Positions 34,799 through 39,694 of a DNA stretch of 64,000 nucleotides are shown here, in pieces (within the stretch, counting starts at the first letter, position 1; each line of letters begins with the position of its first letter). Location: contig NZ_CP121197.1 of NCBI RefSeq assembly GCF_029625215.1, positions 1,612,001 to 1,676,000 on the forward strand. Direction: 5' to 3'. The translations under genes and the position numbers were made by a program. The notes below the pieces were generated by a model. It had not been told where the DNA came from, ran no database searches, and saw only the letters and a program-made list of their open reading frames with translations. The stretch is from Aurantibacillus circumpalustris (GTDB lineage Bacteria > Bacteroidota > Bacteroidia > B-17B0 > Aurantibacillaceae).

Positions 34799-36214
34799 AT
34801 GAAGTTCGATAAACTCACAAATCTTTTTAGCACCGAAAATTTTAAAAAACCAACGGTCGTTTTTTTTATATTTTCTTTCTGTTTTACATTCTGGTTTTTA
34901 GATTTTTGGAAACCATACAATACCGCAAAAAATCAGAATAATTTCAATTGGGACATCATGAACTATTACAGTTATTTGCCCGCGAAATTCTGTAACCATA
35001 ATTCTTTCGATTTTTTTCTTGGTGCTGATTCATTGTATCTACCAATAGGACCATTAGGCACCTTTGTTCCCAAAGCTACTTATGGCATGTCGGCCATGTA
35101 TTCGCCTTTTTTTGCGCTTGGGTACAAGGTTGCCATCAACCAAAAAAGTAACATGAATGGCTTTTCTGAGCCTTTTGCAACCTGTGTGCGTTGGGGTTCT
35201 ATCTTTTATGTTTTTCTGGGACTGTTTTTCTTGCGCAAATTATTATTAATCTGGTTTAACGAAGTCGTCACGGCAATTACACTCTTTGCGTTGCTATTTG
35301 GCACCATACTCTTTGATTATACCTTTAGTCAAAGTGAAATGACACACGGCTATCTTTTTAGTTTGTTTTCCATTTTTCTTTACCTCACACACAAGTGGCA
35401 TTTGGAGCAGAAGTTCAAGTACACCTTTTTTCTCGGTTTTGTGTTTGTGATGGTAAGTTTAATACGCCCAACTGAGATTTTTATCTTCCTCTTTTTTCTT
35501 TTGTGGAATATTAAAAAGCCTGCAGACTTTAAAACAAAATTCTTTTTCTTTCTTAAGAACTACAAACACTTTTTGCTCATTCTTTTAATGGGTATTATTA
35601 TGTGGATACCACAGTTTTATTTTTGGAAACAACGCACAGGCATGTGGGTTTATTACCCTTACTTTGATGAAGGTTTTTTCTGGAGCGATCCGCAAATATT
35701 GAATATTTTATTCAGTTATCGCAAAGGCTGGATCACCTATACACCAATGATCGTAATGGCCTTTGTTGGTTTTTTCTTTGTAAAAAAAGAATTTCCTGTT
35801 TCAAAATGGACATTTATTTTTATAACTTCTTTAATGATTTATGTGTTGAGTTGCTGGTGGGACTGGGCTTTTGGCGGATGTTACGGAGCAAGGGAATTTT
35901 GTCAGCAAATCGCTTTTCTTGCCATCCCCATTGCTTTTTTTATTGACTTTATTTTTTACTCAGCAAAGAAATTCAAATTACAAGGTCTCTTAGGTCTCGT
36001 GAGTTTGGTTTTTATTTTCTCTTGTGTGTTTTTGAATATTGGGCAAACTTATCAATACAATCACCAGCGCATTCATCCTTCAGGCATGACCAAAAAGGTG
36101 TATTGGGATATTTTTAGGCAGTATCAGTTTAAAGACGATTACACCTATTGGGGCGATATCAAAGAGCCGAAGTATGACGACTACTTAAAAGGCGAGGGTA
36201 GGGATAATAAGTAG
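34799..36214 (+). CDS. Large polytopic membrane protein, possible GT-C glycosyltransferase
   Basis: A 471-aa protein with about ten membrane helices. The first loop contains NFNWDIMNYYSYLPAKFCN, an acidic loop like those of GT39-type proteins, and the last helices are followed by a short polar tail rich in Tyr and Asp. It stands alone between the divergent 739-aa membrane gene and IS copy 2. Substrate unknown. Confidence 0.6.
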   Translation: MKFDKLTNLFSTENFKKPTVVFFIFSFCFTFWFLDFWKPYNTAKNQNNFNWDIMNYYSYLPAKFCNHNSFDFFLGADSLYLPIGPLGTFVPKATYGMSAMYSPFFALGYKVAINQKSNMNGFSEPFATCVRWGSIFYVFLGLFFLRKLLLIWFNEVVTAITLFALLFGTILFDYTFSQSEMTHGYLFSLFSIFLYLTHKWHLEQKFKYTFFLGFVFVMVSLIRPTEIFIFLFFLLWNIKKPADFKTKFFFFLKNYKHFLLILLMGIIMWIPQFYFWKQRTGMWVYYPYFDEGFFWSDPQILNILFSYRKGWITYTPMIVMAFVGFFFVKKEFPVSKWTFIFITSLMIYVLSCWWDWAFGGCYGAREFCQQIAFLAIPIAFFIDFIFYSAKKFKLQGLLGLVSLVFIFSCVFLNIGQTYQYNHQRIHPSGMTKKVYWDIFRQYQFKDDYTYWGDIKEPKYDDYLKGEGRDNK

Positions 36215-36245
36215 AGGTTCCTCAAAACTTTTGAATGAGGACCTC
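36214..36245 (+). terminator. Hairpin after the 471-aa membrane gene
   Basis: GAGGTTCCTCA (36214-36224) pairs with TGAGGACCTC (36236-36245) with one bulged base, starting at the last base of the gene's stop codon. No U-tract follows, so it is a weak terminator or an mRNA 3'-end stabiliser. The remaining sequence to the IS at 36491 is AT-rich with no convincing gene. Confidence 0.4.
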
Positions 36246-36511
36246 GTTGAATATGCATAATATTATTTTTTACCTGTGATTGAGAGCTTTTAAGCAACTA
36301 TTTGCTTTTAGTTTTTATCCAGCCGGAGGATATTTTCATTTTCAGCCCTCTTTTTTAAGATGCTTGTCCGTGAAAAACGAATCAAATGTTTTCTCAAGTC
36401 AAATTTTTCACATGTCTGTGAAAATAATGTCGACCTGTCGAAAAATCTTAAAAAGTGTAATAATCTCAATACAATTTTTTTCATTCTTGTTGTAAGCTCC
36501 CCAAAATTGGA

Positions 36512-37330
36512 CTACTCAAAAGTAGAATTTTTAATTAAAAGTTCATTATTATATGTATGAGAATGTTGACTTGTTGGAAACTCTTTTCGAGTTTTCAATA
36601 AATCAACATTCTTTAGTTTGAATAGAATTGGGGATAATCCTCCTAGGCTATCATGAGGTCGTTTGTTGTTGTAGTCATGAATAAAAATATCTGTCACCTC
36701 TCTAACTTCATTAAGATCTTCAAACAAATATGCATCTAGTACATGTCGTCGGTATGTTCCGTTAAAGCGTTCAATATATGCATTCTGAGTTGGTTTGCCT
36801 GGTTGTATATAATGAAAATCGATGTGATGCATCTCACTCCACTCTTTAGTTAATCCGGCAATAAACTCCGGACCATTATCCATTCTTATTGTGCAAGGCT
36901 TTGTTCTTTGGTTAATAAGTCTGTTTAATACCCAAACAACAGCATTGCTTTTTAATGAATGATCAATTTCAATATGTAAAACTTCACGATTGTAATCATC
37001 TATCACATTAAAGGTTTTAAACTTTCTTCCATTTATAAGGGCATCATGCATAAAATCAATAGACCAGGTGTGATTGATGTATGCAGGAACTACAAGTGTT
37101 TCTTTAGTTCTAGCAGGCAAACGTCTCTTGCCTTTTCTTCTTAGGTTTAATTTCATCGCTTTATAAATTCTATGTACACGTTTATGATTCCAAATATTTC
37201 CTTCTAATCTAATTCGTCCGTATGCCTTCCAAAAACCCTCTCGTGGATGTTCATCGGCCTTTAAGCGTAATTCATCCATAACTTTTTTATCGTCTTTCTT
37301 GGTTTTATAATAGATGCTTGATTTTCCCAA
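36512..37330 (-). CDS. IS3-family transposase OrfB, copy 2
   Basis: 272 residues, identical to OrfB of copy 1, with the DDE triad Asp92, Asp151 and Glu187. The TTG start is nominal; the frame is open upstream to 37426, where the A-AAA-AAG heptamer (37420-37426) lets ribosomes slip from orfA into this frame. No stop or frameshift is seen, so the element should be functional. Confidence 0.93.
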
Positions 37331-37413
37331 GTTAAGGATCCTGCACGCCCTGCTGATGCGGTAATTACCACTGCTGCATATTTCAGTTGCTATTTGTTTT
37401 TTAACGCAAGGCT

Positions 37414-37680
37414 TTAGAGCTTTTTTTCAATGATCTCCTTTGCCAACTTTAAATCGAGCGCAAGTTCAGCATACATATGCTTTAAGCGCCTGTTTTCTTC
37501 TTCCAGGGATTTCATCTTTCTTAACTCATCAGAGCTCATGCCTCCATAACGCTGTCGCCATTTATAAAACGCAGCTTTGCTAACGCCATGTGTTCTTACA
37601 ATTTCTTTTAATGGTTTGCCGGTATCAAACTCTTTGAGGATAGCAGCAATTTGTTCGGGGGTGAATCGTTTTTTCTTCAT
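37414..37680 (-). CDS. IS3-family transposase OrfA, copy 2
   Basis: An 88-aa HTH protein equal to that of copy 1 except Lys at residue 25 (GKPLKEIV). Helix-turn-helix [14 protein letters not shown] and the C-terminal coiled coil are intact. The change comes from a single G/A difference. Confidence 0.93.
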
Positions 37681-37824
37681 TTTGCTTAGGTTAATTTATT
37701 AGTTTTTTTTCTACTAACAAATAGTCCTAATTTTGGGGGAGCTTACATTGTTTATCCCAGCTGGTTGAAACTAGCGTATTGCAGCATGGCCTGGTACCTG
37801 TTGTCTGCAATACGGATCAGTATT

Positions 37825-38409
37825 TTATTGAGACTTAATAATTTTTTTTGTCGCTAATAACTGGTTGTTGTCCGAATACATTTTTAGAAAGTATGTCCCT
37901 ATAGATAGGTCTGATAAGTTAATTTCATTTATGTCTGTTTGCTTTTGAAGAACTATTTTTCCGTTTGTGTCGATAATTACGCAACTTTTTAGTCCGTGAT
38001 ATTCGATATTCAAAATACTTGTTGTCGGATTAGGGTAAACAATAAAATCTGGCGTTGAGAGAGAGTTTTCGATTAAACCAACTCCTTTCGATTTCACGAT
38101 TTTTGTTATCTTTTGAGAGGAACCAATTTTAAGGCTCACGAAATAAACCCCGTTGGGCAACGGGTCTGTAACATAAACTATAGAATAAGACCCCGCTGTC
38201 AAAAGAGATTTTGTAAAAAAAGTTTTTGTCACTTGTCCAAGTACACTAGAAATGTCCAATGAAACTGAGTCCGTTTGAGAGAGAGTATAATAAATTGTAG
38301 TCACAGAGTCACAAGGATTAGGATTTACGAATAGAGTGTCACCATTGGCTCCTTTAACCGAAGTCAACAAGAAATTTATTAGTAAAAAGGTTAAAATTAA
38401 TTTTTTCAT
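37825..38409 (-). CDS. Secreted protein made of two tandem T9SS type A sorting domains
   Basis: 194 aa from ATG 38409 (an in-frame ATG 33 bases upstream is less likely). A signal peptide (MKKLILTFLLINFLLTSVKG) is followed at once by a first Por-secretion-tail-like domain (about 28-106: NPNPCDSVTTIYYTLSQ, LPNGVYFVSLKIG, KITKIVKSK) and a second, more canonical one (122-194: YPNPTTSILNIEYHG, SIGTYFLKMY, KKIIKSQ at the C-terminus). There is essentially no cargo domain. It would be exported by Sec then T9SS. Either a very small surface protein or what is left after loss of the passenger. Confidence 0.75.
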   Translation of the reverse strand: MKKLILTFLLINFLLTSVKGANGDTLFVNPNPCDSVTTIYYTLSQTDSVSLDISSVLGQVTKTFFTKSLLTAGSYSIVYVTDPLPNGVYFVSLKIGSSQKITKIVKSKGVGLIENSLSTPDFIVYPNPTTSILNIEYHGLKSCVIIDTNGKIVLQKQTDINEINLSDLSIGTYFLKMYSDNNQLLATKKIIKSQ

Positions 38410-38740
38410 AAATAGGTTTTTAATTGTCGTGTAGCAAAGCATGCACCTAACTCGTCAATACACAACATAAATTCAACAACTAACGATTAAAATCATTTGT
38501 AAGTATTTGTCATCGACTTCGCTGATTTCATGGGTTAAATTCAATACAAGATACTTATTTTACGATAAATAAAAAATACTGTTGCTGTTCTTATCAAAGA
38601 AGTGATTTTAAAGAAATCGGTGACGGATACGGAATAATTAGCAGCTGTATGACGCCGCAATTGGCATTAGATTAACTTTTTTCTAAGGAATGAATCAATC
38701 TTTGGCTTTTGGTTACGTCTAGGATAGTGCGGTTGCGAAT

Positions 38741-38824
38741 GGCGATTTGGTGTGAACCCGAATTTTTCGTTAGGTGGGTTCTGGGTTTAGGTATTTAGCG
38801 AAAAATTCAGGTTGGCAAATCGCC
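38741..38824. repeat. Nested long-range hairpin
   Basis: Outer arms GGCGATTTG (38741-38749) and CAAATCGCC (38816-38824) are a perfect 9-bp match. Inside them AACC/GGTT (38755-38758, 38810-38813) and GAATTTTTCG/CGAAAAATTC (38760-38769, 38799-38808, perfect 10 bp) continue the stem. About 23 base pairs enclose a G/T-rich loop of 29 bases. It does not overlap any gene and lies 3' of purQ. Confidence 0.7.
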
Positions 38825-38837
38825 TTGATTTCTTTTG

Positions 38838-38867
38838 TTACTTTTCTTCATCAAGGAAGAAAAGTAA
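38838..38867. repeat. Perfect 11-bp hairpin TTACTTTTCTT/AAGAAAAGTAA
   Basis: Arms 38838-38848 and 38857-38867 are perfect complements around an 8-base loop (CATCAAGG). It follows the nested hairpin by 13 bases. The words TTGTTACTTTTCTTC...AAGAAAAGTAA recur in spacers of other Bacteroidota as I recall, so this may be a dispersed repeat. Confidence 0.6.
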
Positions 38868-39010
38868 GTTCTAAAAATGGTAAGAGTCTTTTTGGATGTT
38901 CAAATAAATAGTATTCAACGAATTTACTGTAGTCTCCATGCAAATATCTGCGAAAGCAGCAGCGCATCGCCGAAAACATTGTTCCAAAAATAAAAAACAA
39001 ATTTTCTAAA

Positions 39011-39694
39011 TTAATTCGCAATAATACTTTCAAAAAGTAAAGCGCCATCAATGTTTGCTAACTCTTTGTCAGAAGCACGTTCAGGATGTGGCATCATGCC
39101 AAACACATTTTTGCCTTCGTTACAAACGCCGGCAATATGTTCAGTTGCACCATTCGGATTGGCAGCATCAGAAAGAGCACCTTTCTCATCACAGTAGCGA
39201 AAAAGAATTTGATTGTTTGAGTTTAATTTTTTCAAAGTCTCAGCATCCGCAAAATATTTTCCTTCACCATGAGCAATCGGAATTTTAAGTGCTTTGCCTT
39301 GTGGAACTTTTGACGTTATTTTTGAGTTTGTATTCTCAGATTTAATATAAACGTTTTTACAAATAAATTTACGGCTGTCGTTGTGCAACAAAGCACCTGG
39401 TAATAAACCAGCCTCACATAAAATTTGAAAACCGTTACACACGCCTAAAACAAATCCACCTTTGTTAGCATGTTCAATCACACTTTGCATAATGGGTGAA
39501 AATTTCGCGATAGCACCGCTTCTTAAATAATCACCATATGAAAAACCACCTGGCAAAACAATGTGCGTGCAACCTTCAAGATCTGTATTCTTATGCCAAA
39601 GCTTAACGGTTTCTTGCTTCATAATATCCCTTAAAACATAAACCATGTCTTCGTCACAATTAGACCCCGGGAATACAACTACACCAAATTTCAT
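39011..39694 (-). CDS. purQ: Phosphoribosylformylglycinamidine synthase subunit PurQ
   Basis: A 227-aa class I glutamine amidotransferase supplying ammonia to PurL in purine synthesis. Nucleophile Cys86 is in [13 protein letters not shown], and the His/Glu pair in [11 protein letters not shown]; the N-terminus [10 protein letters not shown] is typical. It implies a separate PurL and PurS rather than the long fused PurL. No other pur gene is nearby. Confidence 0.93.

What the first reader, a model, noticed from the sequence alone, without database searches (positions are those of the whole stretch)
38741..38867. Nested 23-bp hairpin followed by a perfect 11-bp hairpin downstream of purQ
Two perfect arm pairs (9 and 10 bp) nested in one another enclose a G/T-rich loop, and 13 bases on there is another perfect 11-bp stem. 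The whole 127-bp block is outside any gene in a 600-bp spacer. Such multi-stem blocks can be small RNAs, miniature transposable elements or repeat-type recombination sites. Base composition of the first hairpin (CG-containing arms) stands out from the AT-rich spacer.
Basis: seen in the sequence. Interest (0 to 1): 0.58.

Follow-up and report, generated by a model that had tools for sequence, protein, structure and literature searches.

The report
Structured mobile repeat downstream of purQ
The paired hairpins are one copy of a family of short, gene-less, interspersed repeats in a group of Bacteroidota, whose folded shape, including a hairpin loop that pairs with its own upstream flank, has been kept by evolution while the letters changed.

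Summary
The hairpins are real and far from chance. They belong to a ~160-bp module (window 38711-38870), one copy of an interspersed non-coding repeat. The same genome holds a second full copy between dusB and miaA, itself split by a DDE transposon, and a third, diverged hairpin end. By DNA search 37 of 100 related genomes match, many only in the second hairpin; by covariance model 25 of 40 genus genomes match.

Copies elsewhere show what the window holds: one end ("end A") of a two-ended element, typically ~420 bp, with outward-facing terminal hairpins and a second, multibranched end ("end B"). Both ends show many compensatory base changes. The second hairpin's loop is complementary to its 5' flank, and the two covary (CTTGAT/ATCAAG, CTTGAC/GTCAAG, CTTGTC/GAC(T)AAG, CTTGCC/GGC(T)AAG, CTTGTT/AACAAG), also within the window's own genome. 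The closest relative lacks the insert beside purQ. Copies sit mostly between convergent genes.

Best reading: a non-autonomous mobile repeat of REP/MITE type whose folded single strand is the recognised form. Its transposase was not found; 25 Y1-transposase loci carry no copy. No Rfam match; not a terminator. An RNA function is not excluded. New variant of a known kind.

The parts
38711..38870 (+). End-A module (R-module), the conserved unit of the repeat
   Evidence: alignment of 23 copies; covariance model R1 scores the window copy 176 bits over model positions 1-160
38741..38749 (+). outer stem, 5' arm GGCGATTTG
   Evidence: pairs counted
38816..38824 (+). outer stem, 3' arm CAAATCGCC
38755..38772 (+). 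inner stem, 5' arm; the most strongly covarying helix
   Evidence: helix 3: 6 of 9 pairs with changes on both sides
38796..38813 (+). inner stem, 3' arm
38824..38829 (+). CTTGAT flank, complementary to the loop of hairpin 2 (its first C is also the last base of the outer stem)
   Evidence: sequence; covariation test
38838..38849 (+). hairpin 2, 5' arm TTACTTTTCTTC
   Evidence: same motif in other genomes
38850..38855 (+). hairpin 2 loop ATCAAG, partner of the CTTGAT flank
38856..38867 (+). hairpin 2, 3' arm GAAGAAAAGTAA

Best explanation
The block is a solo copy of one end ('end A') of a non-autonomous, non-coding mobile repeat. Complete copies elsewhere in the genus and family are about 420 bp (313-591 in 15 aligned) and consist of end B (a ~200-nt multibranched domain with an outward terminal hairpin), a variable middle and end A (nested hairpin plus the outward terminal hairpin GTTACTTTT..AAAAGTAAC). 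Shown: repeat family, two-ended architecture, compensatory conservation of the stems in both ends, covarying loop-flank pairing at end A, absence of the insert at the orthologous purQ site of the closest relative, depletion from divergent (promoter) spacers. Inferred: the ends are recognised as folded single strands by an enzyme supplied in trans and not identified here, in the manner of REP/IS200-type ends, and copies persist where they do not disturb promoters. Inferred and least certain: whether the folded strand is DNA during transposition or an RNA transcript.
For: Other copies: own genome G000:C1:1265490-1267114 (-), 92-95% identical in two pieces, split by an insertion whose protein matches DDE_Tnp_1; a third diverged end A at G000:C1:3107877 with CTTGAC/GTCAAG. 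37 of 100 relatives match by DNA, many only in hairpin 2; 25 of 40 genus genomes by covariance model. Of 23 pattern hits in named genomes, 21 lie in MAGs titled Bacteroidota, Bacteroidia, Bacteroidetes, Sphingobacteriaceae or just 'bacterium'; 2 are chance hits in another context. Structure: end A 23 pairs, 96.8% of cells paired, 25 cells changed on both sides against a shuffled mean of 5.0, 0/500; end B 46 pairs, 65 cells changed on both sides against 14.2, 0/500. Loop-flank pairing: 63 of 71 Watson-Crick and 68 of 71 Watson-Crick or G-U wobble? see the full report for the count; shuffled means 31.3 (max 44) and 42.5 (max 55). Two-ended element: 15 complete copies aligned; 6 of 32 loci L037-L068 have end B close by on the same strand. 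Mobility: in G030, the genome with the highest PurQ identity (94%), purQ and the neighbouring 473-aa protein (79% identical to window 34799-36214) are 34 bp apart; in the window 2,796 bp lie between them. Three of four G009 copies carry inverted repeats GACTTTTTGAG..ACTA at both ends, flanked by TATTTA or TAATTA on both sides. Siting: 15 convergent, 2 divergent, 13 co-oriented of 30 usable copies (p 0.002).
Against: No transposase was tied to the element: none of 25 Y1 loci in 11 genomes carries a copy, and two long end-A to end-A intervals hold ordinary genes. The window copy has no end B and no clean terminal repeats, so it may be a dead remnant. Copy number in the own genome is only two full modules plus one diverged end. 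The empty site differs by more than this repeat (an IS3-type element and another gene also lie in the 2.8 kb). Shuffles do not correct for relatedness. Loop and flank pair over the whole 6-nt loop, which is sterically tight for a simple pseudoknot and may instead mean pairing between two molecules or an alternative fold. No expression data.
Confidence: 0.7

Rival explanations
1. A structured non-coding RNA (or a piece of one) that is transcribed from the + strand and works as RNA; it is multi-copy because it spread by recombination or as passenger of mobile elements.
For: Compensatory changes in both ends and in the loop-flank pairing, the usual signature of structured RNA. In end A non-Watson-Crick cells in the modelled stems are mostly G-U on the + strand (16 G-U against 3 A-C cells, from the pair table, the two pairs outside the main stems left out), which favours a + strand fold.
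Against: No Rfam match at gathering threshold, and only sub-threshold chance-level matches at relaxed threshold, for the window; complete elements give only an unrelated tRNA. No consistent orientation to neighbouring genes (6 against 7). No promoter-like match on either strand, by a sigma-70 consensus that does not fit Bacteroidota. 9 of the 16 G-U cells sit in one column, and end B has no clear bias (28 G-U, 15 of them in one column, against 15 A-C). Patchy presence in the genus.
Confidence: 0.2
2. An ordinary MITE of a DDE transposase: the recognised ends are plain double-stranded inverted repeats (GACTTTTTGAG..ACTA with TATTTA-like duplications), and the hairpin modules are passengers inside it.
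For: G009 copies and the second own copy show such ends and flanking TATTTA/TAATTA. The end pattern occurs in 6 of 9 genomes tested, against few control matches, also around other interiors.
Against: Most copies lack these ends by the pattern scan. In complete 420-bp elements the strongly conserved unit ends at or within about 10 bases of the GTTACTTTT hairpins. Plain inverted repeats do not explain the internal compensatory changes or the loop-flank covariation.
Confidence: 0.2
3. A transcription terminator or mRNA 3'-end stabiliser of purQ.
For: It lies downstream of purQ, and copies favour convergent spacers.
Against: No T-run follows either hairpin on either strand; the only terminator-like site in 38450-39050 lies elsewhere (38658-38641). 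The closest relative's purQ lacks it.
Confidence: 0.03

Closest known systems
REP / BIME / REPIN repeats (GTAG- and CGTC-tagged palindromes), PMC3733652 (part 1 of 8 of the text and passages read)
   Same: Short interspersed extragenic palindromes, mosaic and clustered, in convergent or downstream spacers; the CGTC class also has no known dedicated transposase.
   Different: Those are 20-40 bp with the tag at one end of the palindrome. Here the unit is ~160 bp (420 bp when complete), with a multi-domain fold and a covarying loop-flank helix; a conserved CGTC (38716-38719) lies 21 nt from the outer stem, not at its foot.
IS200/IS605 and TnpA-REP (Y1) hairpin ends, PMC6006769 (passages read)
   Same: Terminal or subterminal hairpins recognised as single strands; base pairing between a hairpin-adjacent sequence and another short sequence is part of recognition. 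The paper reports atypical structures flanking subclass 2.6 genes, mostly in Bacteroidetes.
   Different: There the guide is a tetranucleotide at the hairpin foot that pairs with the cleavage site; here the partner is the hairpin's own loop. No Y1 gene is flanked by these modules in 25 loci tested.
MITEs, e.g. MITECca01 of Cardinium (PMC9769881, passages read)
   Same: Small, gene-less, multi-copy, mostly intergenic.
   Different: No parental IS with the same ends found; interior strongly structured and compensatorily conserved.
IS110 bridge RNA (PMC11208160, search listing and start of abstract only)
   Same: Non-coding structured part of a mobile element in which a loop pairs with a defined sequence.
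   Different: No IS110 recombinase was looked for; the partner here is in cis, inside the element.

Membership tests
REP (GTAG/CGTC) | 20-40 bp palindrome with an unpaired GTAG or CGTC tag at its foot | tested here: not met
   unit ~160 bp; the conserved CGTC is 21 nt from the stem
REP (GTAG/CGTC) | REPs flank a Y1/RAYT transposase gene (GTAG class) | tested here: not met
   25 Y1 loci of 11 genomes, about 1.5 kb each side where the contig allows: no end A or end B by profile with E below 0.2; two ~20-nt hairpin-2-like hits at E 0.03 and 0.08 only; loci
MITE | short, non-coding, multi-copy | tested here: met
MITE | terminal inverted repeats and target duplication | tested here: inconclusive
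   seen in G009 copies and own copy 2, not at the window copy
MITE | parental autonomous IS with the same ends | tested here: inconclusive
   one end-pattern locus read for ORFs (L104) has no transposase beside the repeat that I could recognise; no exhaustive search
IS200/IS605-type single-strand ends | end hairpins plus a Y1 transposase that cuts them | tested here: inconclusive
   end hairpins present; no Y1 gene associated; cleavage not testable
Rfam families | score above the gathering threshold of a described family | tested here: not met
   0 matches in the window; only sub-threshold matches at relaxed setting; 6 loci with complete elements or end A plus B: only a tRNA
Intrinsic terminator | G+C-rich stem followed by a T-run | tested here: not met
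Integron attC site | R/L boxes, integrase, cassette array | not tested
   no integrase search was made

The most novel reading that the evidence does not exclude
A new class of structured mobile element in Bacteroidota in which a hairpin loop and its 5' flank form a co-evolving recognition pair (CTT-NNN with N'N'N'-(T)-AAG): a cis guide that sets which enzyme, or which partner end or site, can be joined, acting as folded ssDNA or as a guide-like RNA.
Probability: 0.15. Interest if true: 0.8.

Novelty: new variant of a known kind. Interest (0 to 1): 0.52.

Why it matters
It turns a pair of unexplained hairpins into a defined repeat family with a testable fold, complete copies to work on and a covarying loop-flank helix that any model must explain. 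None of the papers listed by the searches made here was seen to describe it. If the pairing guides movement it would be a new recognition principle for hairpin-ended repeats; if it is RNA it would be a multi-copy structured RNA that Rfam lacks.

Tried and rejected
RAYT/Y1 link: all 11 genomes tested have Y1 genes (10 over the Pfam cut-off), but none of 25 loci carries an end A or B. Autonomous element between two end-A copies: two such intervals (G355, G005) hold ORFs that look like ordinary genes (read by eye, not searched). Empty site through miaA: the G030 miaA neighbourhood has a different neighbour gene, so uninformative. Empty site for the G030 copy in the own genome: no syntenic match over its flanks. 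Viral contigs, plasmids and phages: no match. Rfam: none. Terminator and promoter scan: nothing at the block. Literature by sequence string and by topic: no paper in the listings was seen to describe this repeat; only the listings and the passages named in this report were looked at, and the library is open-access only. A first parse of the loop-flank test mis-read the bulged loops and was replaced; there 8 of 79 hairpins were dropped for lack of CTT+NNN in the flank (two of them carry TTTGAT, which still pairs with a G-T wobble; two have the flank replaced by an 18-bp palindrome). A simple H-type pseudoknot was considered; the loop linkers of 0-1 nt make it tight, so no geometry is claimed.

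Full report
Observation. The second stem is 12 bp, not 11. The block sits in a 568-bp spacer between an ORF with a type-IX sorting domain (37825-38442) and purQ.

It is a repeat. A search of the own genome with window 38700-38900 gives three places: the window itself, and two pieces of a second copy 1.44 kb apart at 1265490-1267114 on the minus strand, 95% and 92% identical. That copy lies between a gene I read as dusB and one I read as miaA (names recalled from the sequences, not searched) and is split by an insertion whose 426-aa protein matches Pfam DDE_Tnp_1. A third, diverged end lies at 3107877. In 100 relatives, 37 match by DNA; in many of them only the second hairpin matches. With a covariance model of 23 aligned copies, 25 of 40 genus genomes match; many hits under about 50 bits are shorter modules that share chiefly hairpin 2. 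A 20-base core pattern in the named genome collection gave 23 loci: 21 come from MAGs titled Bacteroidota, Bacteroidia, Bacteroidetes, Sphingobacteriaceae or just 'bacterium', mostly contigs seen among the relatives; 2 (L094, L097) are chance matches in another context. Viral contigs, phages and plasmids gave none.

Fold. In the 23 copies the nested hairpin keeps 23 pairs with 96.8% of cells paired; 8 pairs have changes on both sides, and 25 cells do, against a shuffled mean of 5.0 (0 of 500); sliding the partner strand destroys the signal. The inner stem is the clearest: GAATTTTT, GAAATTTT, GATTTTTT, GCATTTTT each meet their own complement. The shuffles do not correct for relatedness.

Loop-flank pairing. 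The six bases just 5' of the T-rich linker (CTTGAT) are complementary to the six-base loop of hairpin 2 (ATCAAG). I selected hairpins by stem alone in all loci held (213 distinct), kept loops of the form NNN(N)AAG (79), and took CTT+NNN from the flank (71). The three free positions are Watson-Crick in 63 of 71 and standard pairs, G-U included, in 68 of 71; shuffling flanks 5000 times gives means of 31.3 (max 44) and 42.5 (max 55). Watson-Crick types found: GAT/ATC, GAC/GTC, GTC/GAC, GCC/GGC, GTT/AAC, several with one extra T in the loop at the same place. The CTT/AAG pairs are constant by selection, and related sequences are not corrected for. Counter-cases: 3 of 71 do not pair over the three positions by this parse (two of them read TTGACC/GGTCAA in a shifted register), and 8 of 79 were dropped. 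In the own genome the window copy reads CTTGAT/ATCAAG and the third copy CTTGAC/GTCAAG. A stem-only pattern found the hairpin in 12 of 296 genomes drawn from the phylum and 32 of 87 of the order, with almost no matches to the reversed control; in the phylum set several lineages show the same flank-loop match and others, such as G289 and G203, do not.

Complete element. In several genomes these hairpins come in outward-facing pairs a few hundred bases apart. Fifteen such units align end to end, 313-591 bp, typically 420. One end (end B) is a ~200-nt multibranched domain with 46 pairs, 21 of them with changes on both sides, 65 such cells against a shuffled mean of 14.2 (17 sequences); the other is end A. 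In the window's own subtype, 6 of 32 loci (L037-L068) have end B close to end A on the same strand; the window has none. The window copy is therefore a solo end.

Movement. G030 has the highest PurQ identity (94%) of the genomes with a match. There purQ is followed after 34 bp by a convergent 473-aa protein; its 79% identical homologue in the window (34799-36214) is 2,796 bp away, with an IS3-type transposase gene pair, a sorting-domain protein and this module in between. The site is empty in the relative, but the module need not have come alone. In G009, three of four copies carry inverted repeats at both ends by the pattern scan, with TATTTA or TAATTA flanks read by eye, and the second own copy has similar ends. 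Of 35 copies checked, 30 had usable neighbours: 15 between convergent genes, 2 divergent, 13 co-oriented (7 against, 6 with the module); 3 fell inside an ORF of a crude caller and 2 lacked a gene on one side. Convergent against divergent gives p 0.002.

Enzyme. None found. Y1 transposase genes occur in all 11 genomes tested, but their 25 loci hold no copy. PMC6006769 (passages read) reports that subclass 2.6 Y1 genes of Bacteroidetes are flanked by atypical structures; whether these are related to the present repeat could not be tested beyond those loci.

DNA or RNA. In end A the departures from Watson-Crick in the modelled stems favour G-U on the + strand (16 cells against 3 A-C, 9 of the 16 in one column); end B shows no clear bias. 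Orientation to neighbouring genes is even. I lean to a hairpin-ended mobile DNA repeat but cannot exclude an RNA. Rfam has no match, and it is not a terminator. In the For line, the loop-flank count is the one given here: 63 of 71 Watson-Crick, 68 of 71 when G-U pairs are included.

Noticed in passing
L049:2128, L050:2110, L054:2208, L062:2164, L066 (about 470), L104:1291: An 18-bp palindrome (TCCCGATAGCTATCGGGA and close variants such as TCCCGAAAGCTTTCGGGA) sits inside or beside stems of several copies, replacing a few bases; the ends of the DDE transposon that splits the second own copy carry the start of the same palindrome.
   Followed up: partly
window 36215-39010: Insertion hot spot between purQ and a 471-aa protein: IS3-type transposase genes (36512-37680), a sorting-domain protein (37825-38442) and the repeat; 34 bp in the closest relative.
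   Followed up: partly
L069:2000-4200 (G025:C185) and L070:1950-2640 (G033:C33): Clusters of hairpin-2 modules with different upstream domains, 200-800 bp apart, on one strand.
   Followed up: no
window 38884-38911: GAGTCTTTTTGGATGTTCAAATAAATAG resembles a degenerate form of the GACTTTTTGAG..ACTA end repeat seen in sister copies; too weak to claim.
   Followed up: partly
L058, L059, L060, L063, L064, L044: A subfamily in which the GAACCCG part of the nested stem is replaced by a ~30-nt sequence of the form CTTGCAAAGCAAGTAGCCAGC..GTGTAAAGC.
   Followed up: no
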